Shown piece after piece: positions 31,576 through 57,853 of a stretch of 64,000 nt of DNA; position 1 is the stretch's first letter; each line of letters begins with the position of its first letter. Source of the stretch: Leptasterias polaris. Lineage: Eukaryota; Echinodermata; Asteroidea; Forcipulatida; Asteriidae. The translations under genes and the position numbers were made by a program. The notes under the pieces are model-generated. The model made no database searches. It had not been told where the DNA came from and was given only the letters and a program-made list of their open reading frames with translations. The stretch covers positions 7,600,001-7,664,000 of the forward strand of contig JAZGTN010000058.1 in the NCBI GenBank assembly GCA_037783415.1, read 5' to 3'.

Positions 31576-31587
31576 TTTGTCCGGGTC

Positions 31588-32664: not shown

Positions 32665-32677
32665 CTCTTGTACACCT

Positions 32678-33463: not shown

Positions 33464-33471
33464 AGTGCCCT

Positions 33472-36446: not shown

Positions 36447-37011
36447 TTTACATGCTGAAACTGTGCATTTGTTTTCTTTCTTTTTCTCCCGACTCAGATG
36501 ATGGATTGACCCAAAATGTTTAGTTTTATTTTTTGTTTGTATAATATGTACATTGAATCACACCAGGTACAACCTAATATTGGAAAGAAAAACAACCGGT
36601 TGTCATTTCATCACTACTTCTTTCCGACAGTCAGTCAAATGTTTTGGCAGTAGAAGCATGGCAAATTAAAGGAGGACACATTACGCAAGTTCCACCAATC
36701 AAAAGACAAGGATATATGTGTGAGGATCCTAGTTCTAAATGCAAGAAAGCATGCTACATGTGCAAAGATAATTACAGTGTGCCATTAGGCTCAACATATG
36801 ATATGTAATAACAGTGCTACATTTATAAGACAACCATAAGTGGGCAAAACAAAACAAATTAATGCAAACTTTATCGTTAATGCAATATTGCATATTTCAA
36901 CACATGTCATGCTATATTGTAAAACATTGACAGTTTGAATTTGAATGGAGCAAGTTTTCCACTGTTGCATGCTCTCTCAGAGGTTTTATCATGCTAAATA
37001 TAACTCCATAC

Positions 37012-37574
37012 CTTGAAGTTGAATTTCATCCAGAGACTTTCCAACAAATTTCCCAATGTTGCCACTATCGACTGCCAACTTTAGTTTTGCAACCTTTGTG
37101 AGTTCTACCGTTGGTGAAGAAAGCCTGTAGAAATCCCGATGCACTTGAATGCTATGGCCAAGATGATCCGCGAGCCAGTCGAGTTGGCTTTCTTTGAGGT
37201 TCAGTATCTGGCTAACTGTGGCAGTATACTTGCGCATCTTTGTAGAGCGAAGTAGATGGGGCTTCTGTAGTTTGGCCTCTTTAGCTATTTCTCGCAGACA
37301 ATCGCAGGCTCTCAGATTGCTCTCGCAACCTGGTCTTGCAAAGAAGTACATATTGCTCTTGCTTATGTCACAAGCAGCACGGTGAGATATCAACAGGTCC
37401 ATAGCTACTTTGCTCTCAGATGGTATAAGTATTGGTACCTTCCGACCACGTTTCCCACGGGTGTACACCATGTCTAACTCTCTCATCAAATGACGTTCCA
37501 GTGGGCTGAGATACGTCTGCATATCCTTGATACTGGATTCCCCCCAGCTTGGGCGCTCAGTGTAAGATGTCACC
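37012..37574 (-). CDS. finger/recombinase-like gene: exon B (recombinase-like domain)
   Basis: The acceptor ttatgtttag precedes 37574, the donor gtatgg starts at 37011, and the phase is 2 in and 1 out, matching exons A and C. The peptide (about 188 aa) contains RGKRGRKVPILIP, then LLRSTKMRKYTATVSQ, then WLADHLGHSIQVHRDFYRL. The Arg...His-Leu-Gly-His...Tyr layout resembles boxes II and the Tyr end of tyrosine recombinases, as in Crypton or phage-integrase folds, although the usual first Arg and Lys are not clear. I infer a degenerate tyrosine-recombinase fold. No catalytic activity is claimed. It is a multicopy type of protein in aquatic animals as far as I recall. Confidence 0.65.
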
Positions 37575-37599
37575 CTAAACATAATAAACACAGGAAATT

Positions 37600-38360
37600 A
37601 TGATTTACCTATGAATCAAACAGAACATTTAAAAGAGGCATTTCGCAGTCCGCTATTTGAGATTGTGTACATTTAACAGTTGGCTTATGCACTTTGGGTG
37701 TCACTGTGTGATAAGTTCCCTTCTAAACGCAATTGAAATCACACACACAAAAACGAAAGAAACATAAAACTCAATTCAGAAAAAAGGATAGAAACTTTCA
37801 GCTTCTACTTTAGTCTGATACAATGTATACTAATGTGTTCACTTTGGGCGCATCAATATCCCATGTCACTGAACGGTTAGCAACCAACTCGAAGCTGTCA
37901 AGTTTATCACAATTTGCTAAACAATCACAGCATTATGTTATTTTAGGAATTCCCATAAATTAGCATAAGATTTTCTTAACAAATTATACAAATATTGAAT
38001 GTATGTGAGCGCATGTTCTCAGAATATCATAACGAGGTGAAATATGGACTATTCAATTTCATGAAGTGTTCAAGAAGAGTGAAATGGGAAGGCCAGATTT
38101 TAATAATTGATTTTCATCACAAATTACAAATTCATGCTTGACATTTCTGCAGATTTTTGGATGAAAAAGCCACAGAGCCGCTTTTACGATCTTTGGAAAG
38201 ATTTGTACATTACTTATGGGCAAACTTAGCATGGAAAAGTGTGTGTGATCCAGTTTCTATGCAAATGCCTGGTGGTGAACTCAATTGCATTATTAAGTCA
38301 TTGCAAAAATACAACATGCACATTTCATTTTTTTAAAGATGTATTAGTAAATACAACTGC
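37600..38360. other. intron A/B with a dispersed intronic repeat
   Basis: A block around acaaatattgaatgtatg, ttctcagaatat and aggtgaaatatgg (37985-38060) has relatives at 23925-24000 and 26590-26690, that is, in other introns of the same gene. Confidence 0.55.
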
Positions 38361-38364
38361 TTAC

Positions 38365-39774
38365 TTAAGCTGCTCCATCTCCCCCGTCCTTCGCTTGTTA
38401 AATATTGTTAGGCGGGTCAACACCAACTCGGAGCATCTTCTGAAGTTCTTGGTAGTAGGTTCTTTTTGCAGGCTGCATGACGACTGTCTTACGTTAGCCT
38501 CCAAGAAGGATGAAAATGTCTTCAAGTCTTCAGTGTCCGGAAGCTCATTCACCTTGTTATAATTACGTTGTGAAATAGTTGTCAAGACCCTTGAGGACAC
38601 TTGTTCTGCCCACTCAGCTTCCTTGAGTTTCAGGAAATTTTTTGCCTTATGTTCAGTAGTGGTGTCATCTCGCCTCAATGCTACACATCTTTTGATTGCT
38701 CCCAACTTGGAAAGACTATGGCCCAACTTCAAAGCTAGGGAAGGACGGTCAGTTTCATTGCTCTTGTGATCAATCTCACTGGACTCAAGTTGGCCTGCGG
38801 TTTGACGTACTCCTTCTACAATTTTGTCAAAGTGCTTGGGTGAGAGAAATGCTTCCAGAGACATTTTGGACCCATTTGTGCTTTGGAGATTCAGCAACAA
38901 TCTTGCAACATTACGCATTTCTTGTGAAACATAGTGTATTCTTCTTTGTGGATCCATGCCAGATGTTTTACGAGCATGAGCATGAGCATTTCCCAGTTGA
39001 ATTATCATTGGATCATTCTGCACAGCTTTGGTTACCAGGTCTTGCTTCATTCTTGCCAACACAGTTTTTACCAGTGGGGAGGCTCCTGTGAACTCATTCA
39101 TCAAAAGGGAACTCTCAAGCTTCAAATCTCTAAAACTTCTTTCGTCATCACCTCGTCCCCCATCACATCTTGAAATACAGTTATGAGTAATGTGCTTCTG
39201 CAGTTCAGTCTTGCAATAAAACCCAAGGCAGTCTGGGCAGGGTCCATAGTCGGACGTCTCAGTCCAGGTATCTCTAATGGAAGGCCTTCTGACTAATATA
39301 AGCTCTCCTTGATTCAATTCAAGGACCATCTTGTTGTGGAAGTAGTTACCTCTGTTTCGGAGCAATTCAAAAGCTTTGGATCTCTCTCTAGATCCGACTT
39401 CCATAGCTGCAATTTTAGCCACTTCTTCTCTGTCCTTATGCTTTTGAAACAGATGTTTGCTAATTTTGGTGACTAGTTTGTTACAGAAGTAGCATGACTG
39501 GTGCTTGTTATAAACTCTCTGGTTTGTATATTTCTGTCTCTCTACTGGTGGATAAAACACTGCACAGTCAATATCATCATCATCGTCACCATCAGCGTCC
39601 ACGTCATCATCACCATTACCAACAGGAGAGCCCCCATTTAGACAAGCACTAACAGGAGAATCTGTCTTCTCGTGGCCACGAACACTAGCTTCAAAATAAT
39701 CATCACCACAAGAGCCTCCATTACCACAAGCATCGGCAACAGTATCCTCATCATCAGTATCCCTGTCACGACTA
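38365..39774 (-). CDS. finger/recombinase-like gene: exon A, 3' part
   Basis: Open frame on the minus strand from the CACTA element boundary (39774) to the donor gtaagc at 38364. It starts with the end of the acidic repeat (DSPVSACLNGGSPVGNGDDD), followed by a finger (SCYFCNKLVTKISKHLFQKH: Cys-x2-Cys...His-x4-His), a second Cys pair (CPDCLGFYCK, then His), and a long alpha-rich domain ending in EMEQL. The frame is continuous with the upstream part at 53120-54140 if one copy of the TA target duplication is kept. It joins exon B in phase 2. Confidence 0.7.
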
Positions 39775-39799
39775 CACTGTAAAAACGGCGCTTAGCATT

Positions 39800-40700
39800 T
39801 AAACACACACAAAACATGTTTACACGCAAACATGTTTAGCAATATGTTTGAAAGCTAAACGGGTATCTTTTTAACATGTCCAAAAGCTAAACGTGTTGAG
39901 ATTTGTTGTGCTTGTTTGAAGTGAAGTTTTGAATTTAAACACAATCAAAACATGTTCACACGTAAACATGTTTAGCAATATGTTTGAAAGCTAAACGGGT
40001 ATCTTTTTAACATGTCCAAAAGCTAAACGTGTTGAGATTTGTTGTGCTTGTTTGAAGTGAAGTTTTGAATTTAAACACAATCAAAACATGTTTACACGTA
40101 AACATGTTTAGCAATATGTTTGAAAGCTAAACGGGTATCTTTTTAACATGTCCAAAAGCTAAACGTGTTGAGATTTGTTGTGCTTGTTTGAAGTGAAGTT
40201 TTGAATTTAAACACAATCAAAACATGTTTACACGTAAACATGTTTAGCAATATGTTTGAAAGCTAAACGGGTATCTTTTTAACATGTCCAAAAGCTAAAC
40301 GTGTTGAGATTTGTTGTGCTTGTTTGAAGTGAAGTTTTAAATTTAAACACAATCGAATCATGTTTACACGCAAACATGTTTAGCAATATGTTTGAAAGCT
40401 AAACGGGTATCTTTTTAACATGTCCAAAAGCTAAACGTGTTGAGATTTGTTGTGCTTGTTTGAAGTGAAGTTTTAAATTTAAACACAATCGAAACATGTT
40501 TACACGTAAACATGTTTAGCAATATGTTTGAAAGCTAAACGGGTATCTTTTTAACATGTCAACAAGCTAAACGTGTTGAGAGTTCACGGTTGTGCTTGTT
40601 TGAAGTGAAGCTTTGAATTTAAACACATTCGAAATGTGCTTACACGCCAACGTGTTAGAAATAATGTTTGTAAGCTAAATGGATATCTCACGTGTCAAAA
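39800..40700 (+). repeat. left subterminal array, 136-bp unit, about 6.5 copies
   Basis: gtttagcaatatgtttgaaag recurs at 39834, 39970, 40106, 40242, 40378 and 40514, always 136 bp apart, with a decayed seventh copy near 40650. Each unit holds several short palindrome-like sites: aaacatgttt, taaacatgtttag, gctaaacgtgttgag and ttaacatgtcc. The same core is found at the other end of the element. In En/Spm such sites are the binding sites of TnpA. That role is inferred here. Confidence 0.9.
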
Positions 40701-41149
40701 AGCTGGACGCCTATTGCGATTTGTTTTGCAGGATAGAACTGTTATCATTTAAAAAGGCCATATGCCTACATTCAGAATGTATTTTCACTCAATTTTTGAA
40801 GCTAAACACGTGTAGCAAGTTGACACAGTGTGTAGGGTAAAGTTACGTTTTAACAAAATGCGAAGTATTTAAAACCCGTTTAATTTTGCGTTTGTGTCAT
40901 AGCAAACGCTCATTTAACTTTGGGCCAAGGCCTACATGTAGCCTACTATAGCTTTTTGATACAACACCTAGGCTATTTAAAAAAAACGATGAGCAGAAAA
41001 ATTTGCTTGATAAAATGTCTATGATTGGGCCCAGATTAAGATGACGTCTTAAGATTCAACAATTATTTTAATGTTTTACGCTCATTGGCTTAGTTAGTTC
41101 GGTTTCTAATTCAATCATTTCGAGCAAAACACGGCCACGAGAACACGTC

Positions 41150-41365
41150 ACACCTTGGCTCGTGATCCAAAAACAGTATTCTAAAAACTACTGCATAATA
41201 ATAGCATTAAATCAATCGAGTTTTGCGCGGCTGACCTGAGCGTACTCACACGTCCGCAACATCCCACCAGCGCATGCGCAGCACCACTTCCTCTCGCTGG
41301 CTGGAAAACGACGACATCACACTGCTTTACAGCGCCCAGAAAACAACAATTTTTTGCATGTTTTG
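41150..41365 (+). promoter_or_regulatory. probable promoter and noncoding first exon
   Basis: A locally GC-richer stretch contains gcgcatgcgca (41270-41280), the NRF1-type palindrome common at TATA-less animal promoters. It ends in a strong donor (tttttgcatgttttg, then gtaagt at 41366). No ATG-initiated long frame lies between, so this fits a 5' UTR exon that splices to 42903 or to 43565. Transcription start is not visible from sequence. Confidence 0.45.
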
Positions 41366-42902
41366 GTAAGTAGTTTCCGATAAAAGACTTCATTAGAATG
41401 ACGTAGATAGGCTATTAGTCGTTGTAGGTTTTATGTAAGGTTTATAATTACTGCGTGCATGTCGTAGTTTAACGTTTACACCAGCGCTAGCCCATAGACA
41501 GGCCGAGCGTAGCTTGAGCATTACGGTTTTACGTTAAATGATATTGATACGTTTTTACATGTACATTATAGGCAGGCGGTTGTATGGTTGTATCGACATG
41601 TCGACACGATGGCATCGTCCGGATCCCTCTTCTATCCTAAAAAAACTGACCACGTTCAATGTTGAATTGGGTGAAGCTTGATTATTTATTGATTTTATGA
41701 AATCACGCCACTACAATGACTTTATCCAGACTTTGAAAATTTGTTTATGAGGCGAACAACACCGTTCCCGCCAAAAAAAGTTTTGTGCAGGAAGCTTACC
41801 ATGAGTTCTGTAACAGTATCCCACATTGGGATTGGCTGATGCTCTGAGCGTGCTGTTAATGTTACGTTCATTGATTGGCTGAAGTACTGCCCTTCGATTG
41901 GCTGGTTGGAACAAGCCTTGGATCTAACCTTTTCACAAATTTCTCGATGCGGAAACACACGGTTAAATTTTCCATTATCAACGTTGTGTGCATATGTACT
42001 TTGTATGTTTTAGTATAGGGAGAGTACAATGACAGTTACATTGTTGCTCCTCTGCCTGTGGGAGTGTGGCTTTGCCTATGAAAATTATGTTTTTTATACA
42101 GTAATTTTTTGTTCTCAATATGTTCACCGTGCTCCAGTCACGTGGGTTTAAACTCATCAATTTAACACTGTTTTTATTTATGTTTGTGCATTGAACTTAA
42201 CAGCTGAGTCAGTGGCAACATCATTCATCAGCACTGCCACTGCTTGTTTGCTTGACTGTAGTTTTTAGTGGATGGCTGAATTAAGAAACAAGTTATTGTG
42301 AGTTCAAAGAGCTTAAAGCTGGCTTGGGGTCAGCACAATAATTAAGGTTATATTTATATATTTGTTTGTCTTTTATTGTATGGGTTTTGAGGCACTGGTA
42401 CTATGGTAGTGGTAAGGTATGGATTTATATATATATATTTTTATATAATATTTTGTTTTTGCAAAAATATCAGTTCTGTGTCAGTTTCTAAATGTTAACG
42501 AAATTGCACAGCTTTTTTTGGGGGGGGGGGGGGGGGGGGCCTTATGGATTTTCCACTATATGGACCTAAACATATTAGGTATAATGATTGGTCACATTCA
42601 CATGTGAGTGTGACATTTGTCCCAAATTATTTGGATACGCCTTCCCTTCTGAAAATAAATGTAAATTAATAATGTAAGTCTAGTCTTACTTAATTCCCCA
42701 TTCAGATTTCATACTCGGTGTGAAAACAGGATGAGTTTTTTGTAATGATTAATTTTGGTTGCTATTGTGAACTTCTCATTTGAAAGTGAAATGGATCCTA
42801 TTCACAGTCTATTAACGAGGAATACATACATGCATTTCAAACATTGTTAAAAGAGTAATCATGTAATCTACTCAAATCAGTGCTTTTATTTTTTACTTTC
42901 AG

Positions 42903-45900
42903 CTTTTGATATGGAGATAAATAATGATTCCACAGTGAGGGATGTCCTTGAGTGGCTGAGCAACAAAAACCTATCGGATGCATCCTTGGGAGTGATAAGA
43001 GGTAAGTGTTATTACTTATTAATGCATTTTTTTTCTTGGCAAAGTATTTATTGATTGCAAGATTACAACCCGTGGTATTTCAAAAGTTCATTCTTGTTGC
43101 GGCAAGACAATTTTTGCGAAAAGGGTACCCCTAGTTAATTAAACTGTAAATTTCTCATGGGAATATTTAAACAAATTTGCACTGGACCACAGGCCCAAGG
43201 CCAGTAATTTTCGGAGTCGGGCCAAACCAGTCTGGTTGTTTTGTGTTTTTGAATTGAATACTAAACTTGTTTGCCGAGAGATGCATCCTCTTATTATCTA
43301 AACTTGAAGCAGAGAACTCATCTGCAGTGAAACTCAAATTATAATATACATGACATACACACACAACAAATAAGATAAAATAATAATCCCTTAGTACTTG
43401 TTCAAATCAAAACAGTTTAAATTAAAGCTGTTTTCATTGTGACTGGTCTAGTAAACAAAAAACTCCAATCTAGTCCAAGGATGTTTCCTCTTGAAATTCA
43501 AGCCCTTGTGTATGCTTTTGTAAATGACTAAACTTCAGGCACCGCATGGTTCTATATATTTCAGGTACCCAGCAGTAGTGTTTTTCTTTTGACTGGGAGC
43601 AACATTTAAAACTGTTATAATGGCCACTTCTCAGCATTGCAGCATGTGTCCATACTTTACCTCAAGTACACAGAACATTTTACAGCACATAGTGCGCCGG
43701 CACAGAAATGCCCCAACATTTATTGCTCATTGTGGCGCAAAAGGTTGTGGGGCCTCTTTCAGAAAGTACAATACTTATAAAATCCATGTAAAGCGACATC
43801 ACAATTATGAAAGAGAACATGTGTCTGTAGAGGGTGATGTCAGTGATGACTCTGACAGGGATGACATGGATGATGAATGCAGTGAGTTGGACACAACTAA
43901 ATCTGAAGCAGCTTTTCTTTTGAAGCTCAAAGCTGCACATGGCATGAGTAACTCAGCTATAGAAGAGGTGATCCTGAGTGTAAGGGAATTGTACCAGAAT
44001 CGATTCAATGCTTTGAAGGAAATGTTGGAACCACAGACACTTCATGATTTAAATCATCTCCTTGATGCTGACACAGCTTTTGCAGAGCTTGATTCCCATT
44101 ACAAGAGAGAAAAGTATATGAAACAACATCTTGGGTCAGTTATGCCTGAAGCTGTCGTTATGGGAGATCATTTAGCCCGTAAAAAACACAAAGGGAGCTA
44201 CAAATTGTCAAAGAAAACTGATTATGGTTACTTTGTACCATTTCTTGAAAATCTGAAGTCACTGCTCTCAATGCCAGAAGTACAGGCATGTCTTAAAGAG
44301 GCCCGTTTTGTTTCAGAAAGGCTGATGACTGATGTGAAAGATGGTGTCTTCCTGCAAAACAGCAAGTTTTTGAATGAACATCCTGGGGCCCTGCAGTTTG
44401 CTGTTTATACTGATGAATTTGAACTTGTAAACCCAATTGGTTCCCATACCAGGAGGCACAAGCTCTGTGTGTTTTACTATGTGTTGCTCAACATTCCCCC
44501 AGAATTCCGCAGTAAACTGTCTGTGATACAGTTGATAGCAGTAGCAAAATCGACATACATAAAGCGATATGGTTCTAAAACCCTCCTTAAGGATTTTCAA
44601 AATGCTCTTAGAAGTCTTCATCATGGTGTAAATGTATCTATTAATGATTGTGATGTACTCCATTATGGTCTTTTAGTAGTATTCCTGGGTGATACTCCTG
44701 CTGCACAAAGTGTTGGAGGATTCAAAGAAGGAGTGGGAGGTGCATTGAAACCATGTAGGACATGTGATATTTCTCGCAATGCATTAAATACACGCTTCTA
44801 TGACAAAGATTGTGATGGGAGAGATGAAGATGAACATCGGGACAGATGTAACGAGCTTGAAGGTCTGTCAAGAGAAGCCAAGCTTTATTGGTCAAAGCAA
44901 TATGGCATTAACAGCAAAGGTTTGCTTTTCTCTGTGCCTGAGTTTCAAATAACTAAATGTATTTTACATGACCCAATGCATGTTCTCCTTGAGGGAATAG
45001 CTCGTATAGAGGTAAGACTACTACTTGTTCACCTGATTCAAGAGAGGTACTTTTCTGTTTCCGACCTGGGCAGAATTATTGAAAACTTCAATTACAGTTC
45101 ATCTGAGGTAAATGATAAACCTCAAATTATTGAGGCAAAAGATTTGCAACATAGTTCTACCTTGCGTCAAACTGCTGCATCAATGAAAAATCTCATATTG
45201 TTGCTGCCATTTATGGTTGGTCACATGGTACCAAGAGAAGATCTCCATTGGGTAAATTTCATTCGATTTCAGCAGATTATTGGGCTGTGTCTTTCACCAG
45301 TGGCATCAGAAAGGACATACAACAGTTTAACAGACCTGATAGCGACTTATCTTAGGTATTTCATTGAGCTGTATCCTGACAAATCATTTACGCCAAAAAT
45401 GCACTATCTGTTGCATTTCCCGAAGCAACTGCTTCAATTTGGTCCATTGAGACACCATTGGTGCATGCGTATGGAAGGGAAACATGGCCTGTTCAAAAGT
45501 CACAAATGGCGTAATTTCAAGGCAATAGCTAAATCAGTTGCTGAGTATCATCAGCGTTGGATGTGTCTTCAACAGCTACAGGCAAGTGGTAAAAGATCGG
45601 AAACATACCTTTATGTTGGGGATGAGGTTAATAAAGGGTCCACTATGTCCATTGACAACTATGAATACATTGAAGTTCTGACACCCAGATGCTCTGAACT
45701 GCAGAATAACGATGTTCATGAACTGTTGCTGACACGTCGAATACAGATGAAAGGATTGGTATACGAGGTTGGGACTGTTTTGATGACATCATGGGATGAT
45801 GGATGTATGCCAACACTTGTCAGGGTCAAGAGCATTGCTGTTGTTGAGCATGCAAAATATCTAATTTGTACAGATCTTGAAGTAGAATACTTTGCAAGTC

Positions 45901-48900
45901 ACTTCAACAGCTTTGTAGTAAAAGATACTGGACACCTTCATGCTGTCCATGCAGCTAAAGACCTTTCTTACAGATGGCCACAAATTTCTCATGAAACACT
46001 TGGGGTTAAGTATGTAATGCTGCAGAATGTTGACGAAGTGTGGTTTATATAACTTAACCTCCCATTCAACAGAGAATGAAGTTGATGGAACAGCACTCCT
46101 CAGCTTGACAGAGGAGGACATATTCCACATGTTTCCTGACAAGGTTGGTGTTGCTCGGAAGTTAACTACTCTAGTGAAACAGATCCTTGTTGATGGTGGA
46201 AACAACTCACAAGAGGTTGGTTTGGGCTCTTTCATTTCTGTACTGTTATAATAACTTGTACAGCACTGTTGTACCCTGAATGAGAGGGAAACAAATTTTG
46301 TAATACAATTTTTTATTTGTAGGGATGGTATGCCATACAGTATACCATAACCAGCCTATTTTAGTTTATGTGCCTATTTATGATCTCATGTTTGTAGCTA
46401 TCAACCCCAGCAGAGCAGATACGTGCAACAGCTTCAACTTCAAGCACTAAAGCAGCAACTGATCCATCTCGGCAATTCACCACCCCGTCGTATTCGGACC
46501 ATATTGATATGCTTTTGGAAAAGAAGGAAGTTTACAAAGAGTGGTCGAAGTTTATTGAAGAAACCGCTTATCACGTTTTAGCCCACCGTGACATCTTAAA
46601 CCGTGGAGACTATGCTGATTTTGGCCAGTTGATGTACAACATGTACCCCTGCATTGGCCATAAAGGCGAACATCCCTGGGTGAGTACTAAGTATGTGCAG
46701 GCAGGTTTGTGGTCTCCAGTACAAGCAAAGCTGCCAACTCTCCCTTATTCTGTAGAAAATTCCCTGAAAATCAACCAATCTTTCCATGTCCTGTCTGATG
46801 AACAAATTTGAAAAATCTCCCTGATTATGGAAACTGTTTCCCTATTATAATATTTTGAATGTAATTCAAAATATCTCCCTGATTGTTGTAAAAAATCTGC
46901 ATGATTGCAAACTTTGGCAGCTCTGTACAAGTGGTCAATTTAACTAAATAAGCCTCCTGAACATGGTATATAATTATTATCTCAAAGTTGTGGTCAAGAT
47001 ATAATTGATGTATAGTTGACCAGCAGACAAGGCAACATTTAGAGAAAGTCACAATTTCCTGAAATGCTGTTTATTTAGCCAAAAACAATTGCTAAGCCAT
47101 GTTGGCATGAGCGATAGAGCAATGCACTACCAGTGCTCATCAAACAGATATACTGGCACTTATAAACAATTACACCTGTTTTTATTTAGTTTATATTTCC
47201 AATGCTTATTTCATTTCCTGGCTAAAGACATGGTGGTCTAAATGTGTTTAATTTGCAGTCGTACTTTAATGAAAAGTTATCTCAGAAGCTTAGGAACATC
47301 AGATGGAGAAGAAACAGGAGATCTGAAGGAGAGCCAATCAAGAAAAAGAGAACATCTAGAGCAACTCAGTTTCTTGCGCTTCAAGATCAAGAAGGTAAAA
47401 GCTGATGAATAGTGAATAATTGGTCTTGTTTTCATTTTTCTACAGTATGCATCTTATGTAGAAGTCCATGGTTTCCAAGTTTCGGTAATGGGCACCGAGT
47501 TGAAACAAGGTACTTGGAATGATTGCTACTTTATTTATGTTTAGAACATGGAACAAAATGTTGACCATGGGTGTATTCAGAATCAGTCAAAGTCGTTTAT
47601 CCCTTGAGCATTCCGTTTGCCCTCATCTCTGCCTCGGGAAAATACAACCTGGGGCAACAGTACATGTATAATTATTTATACTATTTTGCTAATATCATGT
47701 GTGTACATGACTCAGGTGATCAATCTAGTTACGAGGAGAAAAAAGATGCCATGAAGAAAATGTGTAATGATGAGGTGAACCCAGATAAGCCGAAACTAAG
47801 GAAAATCCAGCGAGACACCTTCACTCTAAGAAGACGGTGGATTCAAGGGCTGAAGGATGGTGATGTGGGAACTATTGTCGAAGAATTTCCCATCCTGAAA
47901 AAACCTTGTTTTGTAAGTATATATAATACTCAAAATCATCCATCTCTTGCAATGTTGGTGCACTTTCTTAATGATGTACATGTACAAAGTAGTACAATAC
48001 TGAAAAAGATACAAAAAGAAGAAACAAATTGTTTCTTTAAAAATTCATGGTCCTGACTAGGTTTAAGCACTTTCATTTTAGCAAGAAACATTGGATCTTT
48101 TAATACATTGTGTACATGGTGCTTTGTGTGAAATGTACTTGGCTCCACAGGTTAAAGTCCCTGCTGCTACATCATCATTATTTTATTTGACATAACCAAA
48201 AATAGATTTAAATTTAAAGCGGTTGGTTACCCTTGTGGTTAAATATTACCTGATACTTTCAGACAGCTGATATACTTGTTTTTGTTACATTTTTTGCAGA
48301 TTGTGCAGGAGTTTTTTCTTCTAAGGACAAGCTTAAACCAAGAAACGCTTGGGGAGAATATCCGTCAAATGATAGGATTTCTAGACAAAATGTGGGATAT
48401 TGAAGTGAGTGTACTTCTTTGACTGAGGCTTCGCTTTGTTTTGTTTGCTTTGCTTGTTTGCAGGTGTGTTGTTTTTTTTTTGGGGGAGGGGGGGATTTCT
48501 TTTCCTAGCATGCCAAGATAAGTTATGTATCGGTTAACAGGTCGTCTGTTAGCGGTCTGTAAGTTTGTTTTCTGCTTCTTATCCATGCAGTTTTTCAGTG
48601 GATCAGCTAATTTCAATTTTCTTGTATCTCAGATTGCCATTGGCTGAAAAATTCAAAAACACTGGCAATTCGTATTGTGCTAGCATCTACACCTCTCGAA
48701 AGTTAGCATGCCTGTTGTTATACAGAACTTATGAGACCAAATCAACAAATCACTATGTTTATGACAAACCTAGATTGCTGACCTGCTATTCAATAATCTA
48801 AAATGATCTTTTTTTTTGCATTATTTTGCATCAGTTGCATCACATTCAACTTGATATGTAGCACAACTTGGTGGCATGTTAGCATTACAAAATTATTATG

Positions 48901-49948
48901 TATTTTATTGGAATGAACTAATCAAACAATTATTCATGGTTTAGGATGCCAGTGACAGCGACAAGGATGTCTATGACTCTGTACAAAAGCTCCAAGAGAA
49001 GGTGTCCCTTCAGGGGAAGAGCAGCAAGGAACACGCAGATGCCATCACCTTAGTGGAGGTAAATGTTATATAAATATGTGTTTTTCTTGATTGTTATGGA
49101 CCCTTTTTTTATAACAAAGGTTTGCAGTTTGAAGGCTTACCCCCCCCCCCCCTCTGTCTCTGATCGATTTCCTTTTTATTGATTTTTTTTCTCAGATGTA
49201 AAAAAAAAAATCATCTTGTGAGGGAATATGCCTGAGTAGCAGCCTTTGTAACGGAACATTTTTCTCAATTTATATAACTACACAAATTTTCAACAAATGT
49301 TCTTTCTTCGAATTGGGTGTTGCATCTGTGTGGAGGCCTATCCCCATGGCAAAAGCACTTTTTTAAAACTGATTTGGCATGTTTTGACTGCAGCAATAAC
49401 TGTTTCGCTCACCAAAATCGTCTCAAAATTTGCAAGGTCTGAATCATACTAAAGTAATATGCCTGTGTATTTTTCCAGCAGGACTTGAAAAGTAACGAGT
49501 ATACAGTGCTTATCACACATCAGTGTAATGGTAAAACTAAAATTAAGATAACTTAACGTACACCTGTTAAAATAAAATATTAAATACGGTGAATTCATTA
49601 TATTTTCAGGCACAAAACTTCAAGGCATCCTGTAAGCAAGGAGACCCCCCTCGACTAGTTGTTCTCTCGGACATGAAAGGCGACCTCTTTAGCAGCGGGT
49701 TCATATTGGCTGATGGAGAGGTCATCGAATGTCTGCCGGAAGACGGTATACTTGCAATGATTTTACTCTTGATGTTTACTTATTATGTCTGGGATCTGTC
49801 ATATCCCAAGCAATACCAGATCCTTGGCTTCATTCAGGAGTGGGTTTTCACTGACAAGGAAAACAAATTTTTGAAGTCCACAAACTTCAAGAATTTTGAA
49901 AAAAGATATGAAACTGTGGTGGATCGACAAACTGAAATTGAACAGTAA
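42903..49948 (+). CDS. SAM-domain protein gene, eight coding exons, 468 aa
   Basis: Coding exons: 42911-43001, 46073-46215, 46398-46679, 47259-47394, 47716-47912, 48300-48404, 48945-49058 and 49610-49948 (TAA). All junctions agree in phase and the sum, 1407 nt, is an intact frame. The start ATG follows the acceptor ttttactttcag at 42902. Residues 1-75 form a SAM domain: TVRDVLEWLSNKNLSD in exon 1, then GTALLSLTEEDIFHMFPDK in exon 2. The remainder has YADFGQLMYNMYPCIG, SYFNEKLSQKLRNIRWRR with a KKKR basic run, then FTLRRRWIQGL and an alpha-rich C-terminus. This resembles the multicopy 'SAM domain-containing protein 3-like' proteins of fish and invertebrates. SAM domains mediate homo- or hetero-oligomerisation. 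The donor at 46216 (gttggt) is weak. An alternative end exists: donor ACA|gtaagt at 49944 to an exon at 52703, adding about 26 residues. Confidence 0.8.
43620..46052 (+). CDS. CACTA/CMC-type transposase, 810 aa, intact
   Basis: Single uninterrupted frame, preceded by an acceptor (tatatttcag) at 43564 and lying wholly within intron 1 of the SAM gene. It stops 20 bp before the exon-2 acceptor. N-terminus: two C2H2-like fingers (CSMCPYF...HIVRRH at 7-28, CGAKGC...HVKRHH at about 38-60), then an acidic patch (67-90). Core: VYTDEFELVNPIG (Asp at about 265), then VVFLGDTPAAQ (Asp at about 358), followed by CRTC (the C(2)C insertion typical of CMC transposases), then HDPMHVLLEG (about 449), and WCMRMEGKHGLFK (about 613-626, candidate catalytic Glu). 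The spacing matches the DDE plan of plant Tnp2/TnpD-like proteins as I know them. No damage is visible, so the element may be autonomous. The DDE assignment is by eye and needs alignment. Confidence 0.75.
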   Translation: MATSQHCSMCPYFTSSTQNILQHIVRRHRNAPTFIAHCGAKGCGASFRKYNTYKIHVKRHHNYEREHVSVEGDVSDDSDRDDMDDECSELDTTKSEAAFLLKLKAAHGMSNSAIEEVILSVRELYQNRFNALKEMLEPQTLHDLNHLLDADTAFAELDSHYKREKYMKQHLGSVMPEAVVMGDHLARKKHKGSYKLSKKTDYGYFVPFLENLKSLLSMPEVQACLKEARFVSERLMTDVKDGVFLQNSKFLNEHPGALQFAVYTDEFELVNPIGSHTRRHKLCVFYYVLLNIPPEFRSKLSVIQLIAVAKSTYIKRYGSKTLLKDFQNALRSLHHGVNVSINDCDVLHYGLLVVFLGDTPAAQSVGGFKEGVGGALKPCRTCDISRNALNTRFYDKDCDGRDEDEHRDRCNELEGLSREAKLYWSKQYGINSKGLLFSVPEFQITKCILHDPMHVLLEGIARIEVRLLLVHLIQERYFSVSDLGRIIENFNYSSSEVNDKPQIIEAKDLQHSSTLRQTAASMKNLILLLPFMVGHMVPREDLHWVNFIRFQQIIGLCLSPVASERTYNSLTDLIATYLRYFIELYPDKSFTPKMHYLLHFPKQLLQFGPLRHHWCMRMEGKHGLFKSHKWRNFKAIAKSVAEYHQRWMCLQQLQASGKRSETYLYVGDEVNKGSTMSIDNYEYIEVLTPRCSELQNNDVHELLLTRRIQMKGLVYEVGTVLMTSWDDGCMPTLVRVKSIAVVEHAKYLICTDLEVEYFASHFNSFVVKDTGHLHAVHAAKDLSYRWPQISHETLGVKYVMLQNVDEVWFI
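46733..46850 (+). repeat. 118-bp dispersed repeat, copy 1
   Basis: The segment around attccctgaaaatcaacc and ctccctgattatggaaac recurs at 50028-50136. Both copies lie in or just after the SAM gene. Confidence 0.75.
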
Positions 49949-50132
49949 GTGAATAAGGGACATGCAAAATTCACTCTTTTTTTCTCATGGGCCGAGCTAA
50001 TTAAGTTGTGTGCACACCATCCAGAGATGCCAAATCTTCCTAATTCTGCGAAAAGTTCCCTGAAAATAAACCAATCTTTCCGTGTTCTGATGACTAAATT
50101 TAAAAATATCCCTGATTATGGAAACTTTCCGT

Positions 50133-50441
50133 ATTGGTCATTCTGTGTCAAATCAACCCAGGTCACCTCTCAGATTTGGCTAAAATTATTTTATAATTTT
50201 AATCTCTGGGTATAATGAACATATGGGGGAAAAGAGCTAACTCACCAGTTGTTTCGGAATAAAGGCCCCTTAAAGTGGGCGTGGCATCCCTCTCAAGGGA
50301 GGGTCACTGGAGTTGGATTTTTGGTAGCCTGTGTTCATTATACCCATAGATGAATATTAGAACTGATTTTAGTCAAGTCTGAGAGGTAACCCTACCAATT
50401 TTAAGAATATTGGTTGATTTGACACGGAATGATGACCCTTA
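50133..50441. mobile_element. 0.3 kb inverted-repeat element
   Basis: Arms of about 100 bp: gtcattctgtgtcaaatcaa at 50139 is mirrored by ttgatttgacacggaatgat ending at about 50440, and ctctgggtataatgaaca at 50202 is mirrored at 50333-50352. It lies inside the large transposon, 3' of the SAM gene. Confidence 0.7.
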
Positions 50442-50573
50442 ATTGAATTTGCAACATCCCGGTTAAATCCAATCAGTTATCCCGGTTAAACCGCTTACAT
50501 CCAACCAATCCGGATGGATTTACCGATATCCCTGTAAATCCCACCAGAGGATTTCGGGCACTCAGAGTATGGG

Positions 50574-51699
50574 GCGCCGTTTGTCATTTAATTGTTTAGC
50601 GTATTTTTGATGTGTTTTTACCATGGTTTGTAATAATTAGATGTAAACCATAGAAAGTGCTGTCGATTTATTTTGTGGTTTACATACCATAAATTTACAA
50701 TCAAAGCTTATAAGTTATGGTTTATAAACCATGGAAATTGAATCATCATAACATGGATAAACCATGGTTTATAAACCATGAAAATTGAATCATCATAACA
50801 TGGATAAACCATGGTTTATAAACCATGAAAATTGAATCATCATAACATGGATAAACCATGGTTTATAAACCATGAAAATTGAATCATCATAACATGGATA
50901 AACCATGGTTTATAAACCATGAAAATTGAATCATCATAACATGGATAAACCATGGTTTATAAACCATGAAAATTGAATCATCATAACATGGATAAACCAT
51001 GGTTTATAAACCATGGAAATTGAATCATCATAACATGGATAAACCATGGTTTATAAACCATGAAAATTTAAGCACCTTCAAGCTAAGCTTACTTCAAACA
51101 TGGTTTATAAACCATCAAAATGTAAGCATCATAAAACATGGTTTACAAATCATGGTTTATAAACCAAGATATTTTTTTAAAATGGTTTATAAACCATGAT
51201 TTGTGAACACACGATTTTCATGGTTTTTAAACCATGTTTTATGATGCTTTAATTGTTGTGGTTTATCAACCATGTTTTAAGATGCTTCACTTTTCATGGT
51301 TTATAAACCATGATTTATAAACCATGTTTTTAAGATGCCTAAATGCTAATGGTTTATAAACAATAATTTTTAAACCATGTTTTATGATACTTACATTTTT
51401 ATGGTTTATAAACCATGTTTTGAAAGTGCTTGAATTGTTCATGGTTTATAAACCATAATTTGTAAACCATGTTTTATGATGCTTAATTTGTTATGGTTTA
51501 TGCAAGGTTTATAAACCACGGTTTTATGACGCTTCAGTTTTCATGGTTTATTAACCATGGTTTATAGGCTTTGATTGTAAATTTTATGGTATGTAAACCA
51601 CAAAATAAATTGACAGCACTTTCTATGGTTTACATCTATAAACCATGGTAAAAACACATCAAAAATACTCTAAACAATTAATTGACAAACGGCGCCCCA
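50574..51699. mobile_element. 1.1 kb foldback element built of AAACCATGGTTTATAAACCATG units
   Basis: The terminal arms, about 130 bp each, start ggggcgccgtttgtc and end gacaaacggcgcccc. The left half holds a perfect 48-bp tandem array (taaaccatggtttataaacc, followed by atgaaaattgaatcatc) with about seven copies at 50755-51060. The right half holds diverged, mostly opposite copies. The unit is itself a palindrome, so the block is palindromic at three scales. The whole is nested in the CACTA-type element. Confidence 0.85.
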
Positions 51700-52690
51700 T
51701 ATCAGGGTATGTCTACAATTATCACTCACAGCAATCACTGTTTGTATACTATAGGCTAGATAGATTGTTACCTCTCACTTTTCTTCCAACTTCGTCAAAA
51801 TGAAGATACTATCCAAAATAAACTTTGTTTATAGACCATGTTACCCTTGTTTACAGAGTAGTAAAATTGTACATTATAGTGCATTTTCTGACGGGCAAGA
51901 AACTACACAGGCTATATGGGAAAATTTACATTTTGTGTCATAATTTTAAAATTCAAAATTCACAAAAGCAACAGTGGTATAGCTTTTGAGATGTCCCCCT
52001 TTTCTTCATATCAAAAGTTGAGAAAAATCAGACAGTTCAATCTCTATAAAACTTAAGATTTGTTGTATTCTTCCATTGAGCTGTGTACAAATGTGCCTGC
52101 AGGAAGTCCAGGCTCTGTGGCTCTTTTGTAAACATGTGATGTCACAGGTCACATGTACCATATTGCTTGAGGCCAAAAAAATAAATGTTCTGTTTCCGAT
52201 TACATGCCATTTTAAAATAGGGTCGGTAGGTCGGAATGTTGTTTTTTTTTTGCCTTTTTTTTAAAAATTCCTCCGTGGAGCGCAAATTCAAGATTGCCCA
52301 AAAGATTGTCCATTTTTTGCGCAATTAACAGATTTGCGCACAAATTTGGCAAACTTTGGCACTTTTGCGCAATCTGGGAATTGCGCACCGTCGTGCACGC
52401 ACAATTTTTTTATTTTTTTATAATTTTTTTTAGCCAAATAAAAACTTTAGGGTCGCGGCGTTAAATTAGGGTCGGTCGGGAAACCGAACATTTTTTTTTT
52501 GGGCCTAATGCCAGTAAGGTGAGTGTTAGGCTTTAGGCAAAAAACTGTTGTATTACTGTTTGTATATAACGTTGATGTTGAATTGAATAAATAATGATAC
52601 ATAAATATTGAACCTTGCTGTTGATAATTCATTACCGTGCCGTTTATTAAATTCGATTAATAGTCCATTTTGTTTATTATTATTATTATT
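51700..52690. other. AT-rich tail of the large transposon
   Basis: No gene found. A stretch at 52205-52500 has repeated gggtcgg motifs and runs of T and looks like dispersed repeat. Confidence 0.4.
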
Positions 52691-52779
52691 TATTTGTTAC
52701 AGAAAACAGGGTGCATACCAGGAGATTTCAGAGCATTTTACAGGTGTTCTTAGCTTTTCAACATTTACTTTTTCTTACT

Positions 52780-53119
52780 AAAAGAAAAGAGACGGATGTT
52801 TAAAAACTAAGCACATTCTCTGAAACATGTCTTGCACCCTAAACATGTTTAGCACTCACTATTTTGGAGCCCTAAACACATTATATCTAAACGTGTCACA
52901 GGCTAAATGTGTCTCGGGGTAACATGTCACAGAAGTGCGCAATCTAAACATGTTGAGGGGTAAACATGTCACAGAAGTGCGCAATCTAAACATGTTGAGG
53001 GGTAAACATGTCACAGAAGTGTGCAATCTAAACATGTTGAGGGCTAAACGTGTTAAAAAAGTGGGTACAAGCGAGGCGTTTAGAAATGTGCTTATAATCT
53101 AAACACCATTTTTACAGTG
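52780..53119 (+). repeat. right subterminal array of the CACTA-type element
   Basis: Three direct units of about 52 bp at 52920-53045 (gcaatctaaacatgttgagg then ggtaaacatgtcacagaag), plus single sites taaacatgtttagc, ctaaacgtgtcac, gctaaatgtgtc and gctaaacgtgttaaa. The core CTAAACRTGTT(GAG) is the same as in the left array and in the same strand sense. Confidence 0.85.
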
Positions 53120-54140
53120 TAGTAACAGCAGGAGAGTCTCCATCATCATCAGCACCAACAGGAAAGTTTCCATTACGTAATGCACCAGCAAAAGGATATC
53201 TCTCACTACCAGCGCCAACAGGGAATTCTCCATTACGACCACCCGCACCATCAGGAGTATCTTTATCACCAGCATGATGAGAGTTCTCATTACCACCAGC
53301 ACCACCACCAGCACCAGCACCAGCAATTAGAGGGTTCTCCTCACCAATAGCACCAACAGGAAAGTCTCCAATAGCACCACCAGCACCGGCAGTAGAGTTC
53401 TTACCACCAACAGCACTAGCACGAGAGTTTTTAACACCAACAGCACCAGCACAAGAGTTCTTACCACCAACAGCGCAAGAAGGAGAGTTTGAACTACCAC
53501 AAGCACCATCAGGAGAGTCCCTACCAACACAAGCGCAAACATGGACGCCTCCATTACCAGCAAGTCTCCATTACCACTAACAACAGGAACACAACATGTG
53601 TCATCATTATCATGCATAGTCGAAAACAAAGACAAGATTTCATGACTAACCTGCAAAACATCAATATTAGCTGGATGGGCTATTTTGGTATCGGTTACTG
53701 AAGTAACAGCATCATTTGTAGCTTTAAACACTGCATGCCTTTCAAATGAAAATGGGATCACGACTGAAAAGTTTGAATCGGTATCCGATTCCTCTATGTA
53801 TGATCCAGGCGAACCAACCTCAAAATCTGAAAGCATTTCTCGAGTATCATCATTAGCACCAGCAGGAGAGTCCTGACCATCACCAGCACCAGCACCAGCA
53901 CAAGAGTCATTATCACCACCGGCAGGAGAGTCCTTGACACCAACAGCACCAGCAAGAGAGTCTACAACACCACCAACACCAGCAGGAGAGTCCTCATTAA
54001 CAACAGCACCAGCAGGAGAGTCCTCATTAACAACAGCACCAGCAGGAGAGTCCTCATTAACAACAGCACCAGCAGGAGAGTCCTCATTACCACCAGCAGG
54101 AGAGTCCTCATTACCAACAGCACCAGCAGGAGAGTCCTCA
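53120..54140 (-). CDS. finger/recombinase-like gene: exon A, middle part (DSPAG repeats)
   Basis: On the minus strand 54140-53860 encodes about eight repeats of NEDSPAGAV. Then comes a unique acidic segment (REMLSDFEVGSPGSYIEESD), then from 53560 to 53120 more degenerate repeats (RDSPDGA, GDFPVGA, GDSPAVT). A frameshift of about four bases is needed near 53590 (gacttgctgg in place of a gactctcctgctgg-type unit). The repeat segments are otherwise all in one frame. A consensus-like donor, TTGCAG|gttagt, lies in phase 0 at 53651. The repeats are disordered, acidic and low-complexity; no enzymatic role is suggested. Confidence 0.6.
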
Positions 54141-54144
54141 TTAA

Positions 54145-57100
54145 CCCTTTCAGTACCAACACATATTGGCTACTTATGCCATGGTGACCAGAGACATTTC
54201 CTTGACATGGCTACCTGGAGACCAACACTATTTTGCAAAGTTTCAGGTTACAGCGCCCTCACAAGGCAGATTGGGGTTAGCCTAGGTCCTAGTCACATAA
54301 TGCAAGTTGAGCAAGCAATAACATATTACTGTTTCCTTTGGCATATTGCCTTGGACTAAATCATTGCCTTTAACATATATTTGAGGTATGGTATTATGAC
54401 CACTAAATACACAATTGAGTAGTTTAAATGTTGAAGCTAAACATTTGTCAAGTAGCTGTTCATACCAATCTGCATGAGACATATTTTTGAAACGTTAAAT
54501 AAACATAAGGTTTTAATAAATTACTTTTGAAACAGCATCCTTCCCCCCCCCCAAACCCGCCCAAAATTAAATAACAATTGGTTGAGCCTCACAGATACTG
54601 GGAGTTGGTGACTATACCCATGTTGATCAATTGGTTAAGGCGGCCATTTAGATTGTTGGCAAATTATGAATCGTCCAAAAAAAAAAAAAGTTTTAATTAA
54701 ATTTTTAGGAAGCACCCCCCCCCAACCCGCTCCTAGGATAGGACATTAAATATAAACAAGAGAGTTTGGATTACGCACAATATGACTTATAAATAAATGA
54801 CTGGTAAAATCAATCGTTTTATTTATTTCTACATTTAATGACAAAGAAGGAACTGACATAAAATTACATTAAATATTGCCCATTTGTAAATGTCCGCCAA
54901 GCAATTTGGTTTTGGTCCGTATCTCCGTCTATGAGCCTCACATACATAAATTATAATTGCCATGGTGGTTCAGTCGCTTTAAAAAGGCGGCCATTTAGAT
55001 TATTATAACATTAAAAATAACAAAGAGAAGTTTGATTAAGCACAATATGAACGTTACTCGAACAAAATAACTCATAAAATTTATGTTTTACCTATCATTA
55101 ACCAATATGTCAAGAAGGAACTAACAAAAAATATTTCCAAAGTGCTATACTTGTTTTTTCTACGTACCATCCTCCCCCCCCCCCCCCCCCGCCTCAATGT
55201 TGGAAACTTGAATGTATTAAGGATCCAGGAACCCAACAAGACACATAATTAAGTAATTGCATCAGTCGGTTAAGGCGGCCATTTTAATAATAAAAATGGC
55301 CGCCAACCAATTTGGTTTTGGCCCGTAACATAAAATATGGCGAGGTTTTCAGGATGCAGGAACCCAATGAAACCAAATACAAACAATGTGGTACAGTTGC
55401 TTAAGTCGGCCATTTTGATTAATGTAAAATTTGTTTCTGAAACCTTAAATAAACATAATGTTTTAATACATTCCTTTAGGATTGCACATTCAATAAACAG
55501 AAGAGAGTTTTGATTACGCACAATAGGAACTGGACAAAAATTACTCCTCAAATCAAATTTACACCTATCATGAAGCAATATGTAAAGAAGGAACTAACAT
55601 TACATTTTGCCAAAGTGCTATACTTGTTTTTTCTAAGTACCATCCCCCCCTCCCCCCCGCCTCAATGTTGATTGTTGGCAGGCATGCGATTGTGGGATTC
55701 AACATTGTAGCGGGGGGGGGGGGGAGTATTCAGAAAGTTTATAAAATTATTCGTTTGGTGTGGAAATTCTCCAATAATGGTATAACCGCTTTACACTTTT
55801 TTTACATAATTAACTTAATAGTTGAATTGTTGACCTAATTTATCGCTTGGTGTGGAATTTTTCAAAGCATGGTATAACACACATTGGCTTGATACACTGC
55901 TTACAAATCGTGCGAGTTTGTTTCCGATTAGAGGTGGAACTGCATACAACACAGTCACGTTTCTTCCCGTCAACATTCGGACCTGGAAAGTGCTGAGTTG
56001 AAAGGGCGTTTGAAGCACTTGACACTTTACGGGCATGGTGAACTGGGTTGTTCTCGAAGCTTGAAATAAGTGCCTCTATCACCTTGACCCGAAAATCCAA
56101 AGTAGACAAGCTCTTGTTTGTATGGATGCTGTTGTATACGACATTAGCATTGAGCAAACATATGTCTAGGATTGTAATAAATACACGTTTCCACCATTTG
56201 AATGTTTTGTGGGTATGAGTATAGTACGTGCATAATTGTCCTGCCAGATCCGTGCCCCCCATGTATTTATTGTAATCCTCGACTAGGCACGGTTTTTTGA
56301 TATGACGAAATCCTGTTGAAGTTTTCCGGCTCCGAATCTTTTTACTAGTGACACTGCAATCGCCATAGTTTGAGAGGAGAGTGACACGTTTTGTGTCCTG
56401 CCACATAACGCATAGTTGGCCTGCTTTCTGAAAATATTTGGGATCTGCACCGCTTTTCATAGGAAATTTCTTGGAGTTTGCTACGTCGGGTATCCCTAGG
56501 GTGGTATAGCGCACAGTTCCACAAGCTCCGAATCCTAGCTCAGACAACTTGGAGAACAGAGCCGGGCTAGTAAACCAATTGTCCATGTAGATGCAATGTC
56601 CTTTATTTTCGAGTCCCTGCAAAAGGTTCAATACTATGTGCCTATTTCGGATGGATGGTTTGTCTCAGGATCACTTATAGAGGACTGTCCTTGTGGGCAC
56701 CTGGCCGGGCTGCGATCCTGTGAACAACTCCCAGGCACATGTGTACCCTGTGTCGGATTCGTTCAATGAGAAAGATTTCAATCCCCATTTTGCGGCTTTT
56801 CTTGGCATGTACTGCTTGAAGCTCACCCGTCCTTTGAATTTGACCATCGTCTCGTCCGGTGAAAGGCTTCGTCCCGGCTGGTACACCCGGAGGAATGATG
56901 GTAGTACAATGTTTAACAGTGGCCGTAATTTAGCAAGTTTGTCACGGGGAGAGTCGCCCTCGACATCTCTGTTATTGGCGAGGTGAAAAAATCTTAGGAT
57001 TGCAGTAAATCGGTTACGAGCCATGGTTGCTGAGTACAGGGGACTTCGTAGAATTTCAGACCTGGACCAATGCATGGAGTAACGAGGCCTTTTGTTGATT

Positions 57101-57853
57101 CCCATGCAAAGAAGTAGGGCCACGAATGCCATCATTTCAGGTACATCAGTTGGTCTCCATCCACACTTATTTTCTGCCCCCGCTCCCAATATTTGTTCAG
57201 CATAACGATTAGTCTCTAGTACCATCATCTGCCACACTGCTTCACAAAAGTACAGTTTGAAGATTTGTATGGGGGAGAACGAACTGAAGTCTTCTGTAGC
57301 CCCGGTGTTTGCTGTAAATTTAACAGGCGGTTGCCGTGTGTAACAGTTGGCTTCACGCCATCCACACCTGAAATTCGTTTTTTGTTGTTGTCTTCTTACC
57401 CTTCTTAGAACAGGTTAATGTTGCTGTTGATGTCGAGGCCCTCGGCTCTGTATCCTCTGTCTTCTGACGTCTCCGAGTCCTCAAGTGGCGATTCCTCGTC
57501 AGATGACATTTCTGAACCACTGTCTGCGAAAATTTCTTCCAAAATTTTATCATTTTCTTCAGCCATGTTCTCAGAATGATCTCTTACTCAAGAATGCGTG
57601 GGGGGACGCTTAACGATCCCGCTTACATTTTAAAACTTGCGACGCTTCAGGGCACACGCGGCCAGCTTATTGCCATGGGGATGGACGCAGGCGATTGAGG
57701 GGGCTATTAACATTTTGATAACTTACTTTTTGTCGAAGTGCCACAGAGGCTCATTGGTCACCAAGAGTGCTAATAATTACGTGCCATACGGGCTCATTGG
57801 TCACCAAGTGGGATGTTGTTTTGAGCCGCTATGGCACGGCGGTACTGAAAGGG
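54145..57853 (-). mobile_element. piggyBac element, 3.7 kb, TTAA target duplication
   Basis: The terminal inverted repeats CCCTTTCAGTACC (54145-54157) and GGTACTGAAAGGG (57841-57853) match over all 13 bp. TTAA flanks both sides (54141-54144, 57854-57857). The transposase is on the minus strand. 54500-55720, downstream of the gene, is noncoding with internal repeats: 55020-55200 and 55495-55670 resemble each other, each with a poly-C tract. A direct repeat, gctcattggtcaccaag, lies near the 57.8 kb end (57749, 57790). Confidence 0.95.
55840..57566 (-). pseudogene. piggyBac transposase, interrupted
   Basis: ATG at 57566 begins an acidic N-terminus typical of the family (AEENDKILEEIF). It shifts frame around 57380-57420. 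The frame 57350-56671 holds the first catalytic Asp (SLSPDETMVKFKGR). Two in-frame TGA codons follow, at 56671 and 56665, three codons apart. The frame then continues to 55840 with the second Asp (IYMDNWFTSP), the third (VEDYNKYMGGTD) and the Cys-rich C-terminal finger (CVVCSSTSN...CKQCIKPMC). All domains are present. One frameshift and two nonsense codons make this copy inactive. Confidence 0.9.

What the first reader, a model, noticed from the sequence alone, without database searches (positions are those of the whole stretch)
39775..53119. Animal CACTA-type element whose transposase sits in the intron that splits a SAM-domain gene
Seen: a 13.3 kb element with CACTG ends and TA duplication holds two intact genes on one strand. 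The 810-aa transposase ORF (43620-46052) lies completely inside intron 1 of an eight-exon 468-aa gene. That intron cuts the SAM domain in two, so a SAM protein can be made only when the transposase is spliced out. Known: in maize En/Spm the tnpD reading frames lie in the first intron of tnpA and both come from one pre-mRNA by alternative splicing. Inference: this element uses the same one-promoter, splice-choice layout, with a SAM protein in the TnpA role. The 'SAMD3-like' multicopy genes of other animals may then be transposon cargo rather than host genes.
Basis: partly seen in the sequence, partly recalled or inferred. Interest (0 to 1): 0.92.

Follow-up and report, generated by a model that had tools for sequence, protein, structure and literature searches.

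The report
Animal transposon with nested SAM-domain gene
A 13.3 kb animal jumping gene of the CACTA kind carries its cutting enzyme inside an intron of a second gene of its own, so one transcript can probably be spliced to give either protein, an arrangement best known from a maize transposon, but here with a SAM-domain partner protein.

Summary
Window 39775-53119 is a 13,345-bp element with CACTG ends and a TA duplication; joining the flanks with one TA restores a 620-aa opposite-strand frame. An 11-bp motif occurs exactly 18 times in the window, all in the two subterminal arrays. The element holds an intact 810-aa CACTA-like transposase and an eight-coding-exon, 468-aa SAM gene; the transposase lies in the intron that splits the SAM domain. 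Its stop is 20 bp before the next SAM exon, with no AATAAA or ATTAAA for 3.5 kb.

In the oyster Saccostrea cucullata, one annotated gene, LOC134240278, has a transposase homologue (isoform X1) and a SAM-protein homologue (isoform X3). This argues against chance capture and fits the maize En/Spm layout, although X3 starts oddly. That the SAM protein binds the ends is inferred; its SAM domain most resembles polymerising SAMs. The SAMD3 claim is untested. No RNA or second genomic copy was available, and the one distant relative with DNA shows no SAM exon nearby. Alternative splicing in an animal CACTA element is known (SmTRC1), so this is a new variant of a known kind.

The parts
39773..39774 (.). 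left copy of the TA target-site duplication
   Evidence: with the right copy it restores the interrupted opposite-strand frame
39775..39807 (+). left terminal inverted repeat, CACTGTAAAAA core
   Evidence: 11 bp exact, 26 of 33 matched with the right end
39797..40688 (+). left subterminal array, 136-bp unit x 6.5, carrying 12 CTAAACRTGTT motifs in alternating orientation
41300..41365 (+). putative 5' noncoding exon (its start is not defined; 41300 is arbitrary) with donor at 41365|GTAAGT
   Evidence: sequence only, no RNA
42903..43001 (+). SAM gene first coding exon (ATG at 42911), first part of the SAM domain; best-scoring acceptor of 108 in 41401-43620 by a home-made score
43002..46072 (+). 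intron that splits the SAM domain (phase 1) and holds the whole transposase ORF
43565..43619 (+). putative transposase 5' leader after acceptor TTTCAG|G, second-best of 108 by the same score; no ATG before the transposase start
43620..46052 (+). transposase, 810 aa; N-terminal C2H2-like fingers; candidate DDE residues D265, D358, E619 invariant in 50 aligned sequences (window plus 49 relatives)
46073..46215 (+). SAM gene coding exon 2 (rest of SAM domain), 20 bp after the transposase stop
46398..46679 (+). SAM gene coding exon 3 (conserved FIEETAYHVL region)
47259..47394 (+). SAM gene coding exon 4 (LSQKLRNIRW and basic stretch)
47716..47912 (+). SAM gene coding exon 5
48300..48404 (+). SAM gene coding exon 6
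48945..49058 (+). SAM gene coding exon 7
49610..49948 (+). SAM gene coding exon 8 with stop; AATAAA follows at 50065 and 50258
50568..51701 (.). nested insertion inside the element, 65-nt inverted ends (95% complementary), own palindromic repeats
52839..53054 (.). right subterminal array, 6 exact CTAAACRTGTT motifs, 42-bp unit x 3.3 at 52916-53053
53087..53119 (-). right terminal inverted repeat
53120..53121 (.). right copy of the TA target-site duplication

Best explanation
This is a structurally intact, probably fairly recently inserted, autonomous-looking animal CACTA-type (TRC/EnSpm-like, CMC superfamily) transposon with two proteins of its own. One transcription unit starts near 41.3 kb. 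If the first exon is spliced to 42903 and then 43001 to 46073, the transposase is removed as intron and the SAM protein is made. If instead the acceptor at 43565 is used and 46053-46072 is kept, the transposase is made and the SAM exons become its 3' untranslated part. The transposase cuts and joins at the CACTG ends; the SAM protein, through its basic middle part and a polymerising SAM domain, binds the CTAAACRTGTT arrays at both ends and holds them together, as TnpA does in maize En/Spm. Shown: boundaries, arrays, gene structure, nesting, and an oyster gene annotated with homologues of both proteins as isoforms. Inferred: the shared promoter, the splice choice, and the SAM protein's DNA-binding and bridging role.
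Against: No transcript evidence. Oyster isoform X3, as annotated, does not carry a clear first half of the SAM domain: its first residues differ from the other family members up to the exon 2 junction (BLAST starts at window residue 24). The window transposase itself does not match Transposase_21 in Pfam. L001, the one relative with DNA in hand, has no convincing SAM exon in about 750 bp after its stop or in its upstream flank (best tblastn E 0.002 lies inside the transposase ORF). Only 1 of the 7 transposase relatives with a species name in the listing shares a gene name with a SAM protein. Windows of 3,518 bp without either poly(A) hexamer are not very rare here (23 of 1,210 over both strands, some possibly overlapping the region itself). 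Many other AG sites in 41401-43620 score as well as some of the SAM gene's own acceptors. The SAM protein has no recognised DNA-binding domain.
Confidence: 0.7

Rival explanations
1. Same element and nesting, but the transposase has its own promoter in the intron; the two genes overlap without splice choice and share only the 3' end.
For: No RNA; the 618 bp of intron before the transposase (43002-43619) could hold a promoter.
Against: The second-best acceptor-like site in 41401-43620, by a home-made score, sits just before the transposase start; the oyster pair is annotated as isoforms of one gene.
Confidence: 0.17
2. The SAM gene is a host gene captured, or hit by a transposase insertion, in this genome; it has no role in transposition.
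For: SAM domains are common in host proteins (recalled); L001 shows no SAM exon nearby.
Against: Element ends, arrays and duplication enclose both genes and the site closes cleanly; a diverged oyster gene has the same pair; no poly(A) hexamer lies between the transposase stop and 49570.
Confidence: 0.08
3. The SAM protein is a regulatory or host-facing protein of the element (for example a repressor of its own expression or an anti-silencing factor), not an end-bridging protein. This rival shares the gene layout of the best explanation and differs only in the protein's role.
For: Its SAM domain is closest to SAMs of Polycomb-group and other chromatin proteins, and En/Spm TnpA also regulates the element.
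Against: Dense motif arrays at both ends suggest a dedicated binder, and apart from the transposase no other ORF of 180 aa or more lies inside the element.
Confidence: 0.25

Closest known systems
Maize En/Spm (tnpA/tnpD)
   Same: Subterminal motif repeats bound by an element protein, and a large transposase ORF in intron 1 of a many-exon second gene, both made as alternative transcripts, as described in PMC2613891 section 3; CACT- ends
   Different: The second protein here is a SAM-domain protein (no likeness to TnpA was tested; none is known to me); CACTG instead of CACTA; 2-bp TA duplication, where plant elements have 3 bp (recalled; the soybean element of PMC2613891 has 3); animal host; transposase is one uninterrupted ORF
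SmTRC1, Schistosoma mansoni (animal CACTA relative)
   Same: Animal; 2-bp duplication (7 of 14 copies analysed there); alternative transcripts; one clone holds part of the transposase-type PrC and a PrA-type ORF in tandem (PMC1636069: abstract, section 4 part 1, sections 8 and 9)
   Different: SmTRC1 is about 4.5 kb with CCC ends; no SAM protein is mentioned in the parts read
Saccostrea cucullata LOC134240278
   Same: One gene annotated with a transposase isoform (X1, P0013) and a SAM-family isoform (X3, P0123)
   Different: 42% and 38% identity; X3 has an odd N-terminus; its element ends and exon map could not be seen
Polymerising SAM domains (Polyhomeotic, Scm, Sfmbt)
   Same: Best solved-structure matches of the SAM part
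   Different: Host chromatin proteins; the matches cover only the first ~72 profile positions, the rest of the protein has none

Membership tests
CACTA/EnSpm (CMC) superfamily (defining features recalled, and from PMC2613891 and PMC1636069) | DDE transposase of the tnp2 (Transposase_21) kind | tested here: inconclusive
   Window protein has no Transposase_21 match at E up to 1; of 50 aligned members 4 match it, 4 Plavaka, 15 DUF4218 at E up to 0.1; D265, D358 and E619 invariant in the 50
CACTA/EnSpm (CMC) superfamily | Terminal inverted repeats beginning CACT(A/G) | tested here: met
   CACTGTAAAAA at both ends
CACTA/EnSpm (CMC) superfamily | 2-3 bp target-site duplication | tested here: met
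   TA on both sides; empty site restores a frame. Only one insertion examined
CACTA/EnSpm (CMC) superfamily | Subterminal arrays of a short motif | tested here: met
   18 exact CTAAACRTGTT, 12 left and 6 right, none elsewhere in the window
En/Spm-type tnpA/tnpD layout | Transposase ORF inside an intron of the second gene, same strand | tested here: met
En/Spm-type tnpA/tnpD layout | Both products from one pre-mRNA by alternative splicing | not testable with these tools
   No RNA; indirect support from oyster isoforms X1 and X3
En/Spm-type tnpA/tnpD layout | Second protein binds the subterminal motif | not testable with these tools
   Basic stretch 180-215, computed pI 12; no known DNA-binding domain
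SAM-domain protein | SAM profile match | tested here: met
   Single protein: SAM_3 E 2.8e-4, residues 2-56, but 21.2 bits is under the curated cut-off of 22.6; profile of 7 family members matches the Polyhomeotic SAM at 8.6e-8
SAMD3-like genes of other animals | Sequence homology to SAMD3 | not tested
   No SAMD3 sequence was reached; resemblance recalled only

The most novel reading that the evidence does not exclude
A major branch of animal CACTA transposons has, like En/Spm, a transposase nested in the intron of its end-binding protein gene, but built around a polymer-forming SAM domain. The SAM genes of this family in bivalves, and perhaps the multicopy 'SAMD3-like' genes of other animals, are transposon genes that use splice choice to balance end-bridging protein against transposase.
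Probability: 0.42. Interest if true: 0.78.

Novelty: new variant of a known kind. Interest (0 to 1): 0.66.

Why it matters
If right, the En/Spm arrangement is shared by plant and animal CACTA elements although the second proteins seem unrelated, which suggests that the intron-nested transposase is either very old or was reached twice because it balances two proteins from one promoter. It would also move a set of uncharacterized animal SAM genes from host genes to transposon genes, and give an animal system in which end-bridging by a SAM polymer can be tested.

Tried and rejected
Looked for the same pair in IMG/VR contigs with a transposase alignment and with a SAM alignment: nothing confirmed. 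GTDB genomes gave one relative, L001, on a contig labelled as an Aquifex MAG and presumably animal contamination; its short flanks hold no SAM exon. Searching with a SAM profile returned only the same six relatives, with only the 8,000 candidates sharing most words scored. At E up to 1 Pfam names nothing in the SAM protein outside SAM families except a chance-level DUF4926. The idea that the element is a chance pairing of repeats was rejected because of the clean empty site and the motif arrays. Solved-structure search with the transposase profile finds hits only over its N-terminal zinc-finger part. The 49 relatives in A1 were picked by me from the 120 listed of 145 hits. The acceptor score is home-made. 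In one search the transposase leader was joined one base too late; one search repeats it correctly.

Literature: of ten searches, three paired SAM terms with CACTA or EnSpm (0 papers; 2; 5) and none of those papers is, by title and start of abstract, about a SAM protein of a transposon; none was opened. A mixed search held 373 papers, 15 listed. SAMD3 with transposon gave 6 papers and with fish 119, 20 listed, judged the same way. The others were for CACTA comparators and SAMD3-like genes. The library lacks most subscription papers, and Repbase was not searched. Read: PMC1636069 in part, PMC2613891 section 3 and passages.

Full report
Observation. The element spans 39775-53119, 13,345 bp. Its ends share CACTGTAAAAA exactly and 26 of 33 positions overall; with up to one mismatch this 11-mer occurs nowhere else in the window. 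TA flanks both ends. When the flanks are joined in a script with one TA kept, an open frame of 620 aa runs through the junction on the minus strand, 149 aa before and 471 after; of eight offsets tried only the two in the same frame class do this. So the element landed in a coding frame on the opposite strand, which argues for exact ends and a 2-bp duplication. The still-open flanks suggest a fairly recent insertion (inference).

Ends. CTAAACRTGTT occurs 18 times exactly in the 64-kb window: 12 in the left 1 kb, in alternating orientation inside a 136-bp tandem unit, and 6 in the right 0.4 kb; none elsewhere; shuffles give a mean of 0.15. With one mismatch allowed there are 24: 12 left, 9 right, 0 in the middle of the element and 3 outside it. 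I take these as binding sites of an element protein (inference, by analogy with En/Spm, where TNPA recognises the subterminal repeats; PMC2613891 section 3).

Genes. The transposase ORF, 43620-46052, is intact (810 aa). The database search gave 145 relatives, 120 listed, from 88% identity downwards; the seven with a species name come from an oyster, two starfish, a sea cucumber, a crinoid and a nemertean (two proteins). In an alignment of the window protein with 49 relatives that I chose, D265, D358 and E619 are invariant; calling them the catalytic triad is inference. The window protein misses Transposase_21, but of the 50 members 4 match it, 4 match Plavaka and 15 match DUF4218 at E up to 0.1. 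The SAM gene has eight coding exons with GT/AG introns and 468 aa. Its six relatives found are all bivalve proteins, 34-38% identical over 80-98% of its length, and a profile search returned the same six.

Nesting. The intron 43002-46072 splits the SAM domain after residue 30 and holds the whole transposase. The transposase stop is 20 bp before the SAM exon 2 acceptor. No AATAAA or ATTAAA lies in 46053-49570; the first ones, at 49571 and 49579, are in the last SAM intron, and the next at 50065 and 50258 follow the SAM stop. Of 500 dinucleotide shuffles 0.6% also have none, the minus strand of the same stretch has 11, and 23 of 1,210 sliding stretches of that length over both strands of the window lack both. 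So a transposase message probably has to run into the SAM exons (inference). Of 108 AG sites in 41401-43620, the two highest by my simple score are the SAM acceptor 42903 and one at 43565, just before the transposase start; but the fifteenth still scores 1.10, above two of the seven other SAM acceptors (1.00 and 0.99), so the score separates weakly. First exon joined to 43565 gives an 11-codon upstream frame and then the transposase; joining SAM exon 1 to 43565 gives a 34-aa dead end. The likely choice is therefore between these two acceptors.

Independent case. The public annotation thus treats the pair as alternative products of one gene in another animal. I saw only the names and proteins, not the transcripts, and annotation pipelines can merge neighbours. 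Against it, the first residues of X3 are unlike the other members up to the exon 2 junction, so X3 as annotated lacks a clear first SAM half. P0125 and P0126 begin inside the exon 2 equivalent. All three fit trouble in joining exon 2 to what lies before it, as a long intron would cause (inference). Only 1 of the 7 transposase relatives with a species name in the listing shares a gene name with a SAM hit, and the search reaches only relatives with shared five-residue words.

Counter-case. L001 (34% identity, contig labelled Aquifex MAG, presumably animal contamination) has no SAM exon in about 750 bp after its stop or in its upstream flank; the best tblastn hit (E 0.002) lies within the transposase ORF and looks like chance. 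The partner may differ between branches.

Function. The SAM part best matches Polyhomeotic, Sfmbt, PHC3 and Scm SAMs (8.6e-8 and weaker), which form polymers (recalled). Residues 180-215 are strongly basic, computed pI 12, while the whole protein has pI 5.4. A protein with a polymerising SAM and a basic stretch, and dense arrays at both ends, fit an end-bridging role like TnpA, but a regulatory role is possible.

Comparison. Nesting plus two products is the En/Spm plan. For Schistosoma SmTRC1, alternative transcripts, a 2-bp duplication and a clone with PrC and PrA-type ORFs in tandem are described. New here, as far as I can see, are the SAM partner, its occurrence in bivalves with a transposase of the same kind in one annotated gene, and an intron placed so that the SAM protein and the transposase exclude each other. 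Three searches that paired SAM terms with CACTA or EnSpm found no paper on such a protein, judged by title and start of abstract.

Limits. The window's own genome could not be searched, no structure prediction was available, and there is no RNA. The host species is unknown.

Noticed in passing
50568-51701: Nested insertion inside the element with 65-nt inverted ends (95% complementary, TGGGGCGCCGTTTGTCA...) preceded by TA on both sides, and its own ladder of palindromic ATGGTTTATAAACCAT repeats; by eye a non-autonomous DNA transposon.
   Followed up: partly
36989-39774 and about 53120-53568 (minus strand): The frame interrupted by the element: acidic repeats and a C2H2-like part. A separate ORF downstream of it, 36989-37591, resembles a tyrosine recombinase by eye (R...LGHS...H..FY), and that the two belong together is a guess; Pfam finds nothing in either of the two ORFs.
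   Followed up: partly
29206-34191 (minus strand): Ty3/gypsy-like retroelement in several ORFs by eye; the one ORF scanned (30262-31575) has RNase H and integrase zinc-binding matches.
   Followed up: partly
12182-13552 (plus strand): ORF with integrase core (rve) and integrase zinc-binding matches, a second retroelement remnant.
   Followed up: partly
55840-57237 (minus strand): PiggyBac-like transposase: DDE_Tnp_1_7 and zf-Tnp_2 in 55840-56631; the neighbouring ORF 56671-57237 looks like its first part by eye and was not scanned.
   Followed up: partly
L001:2981-3729: Downstream of the distant transposase, by eye, an exon-like stretch between an acceptor and a GTAAGT donor, with no poly(A) hexamer after the stop; possibly another partner gene in the same layout.
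   Followed up: partly
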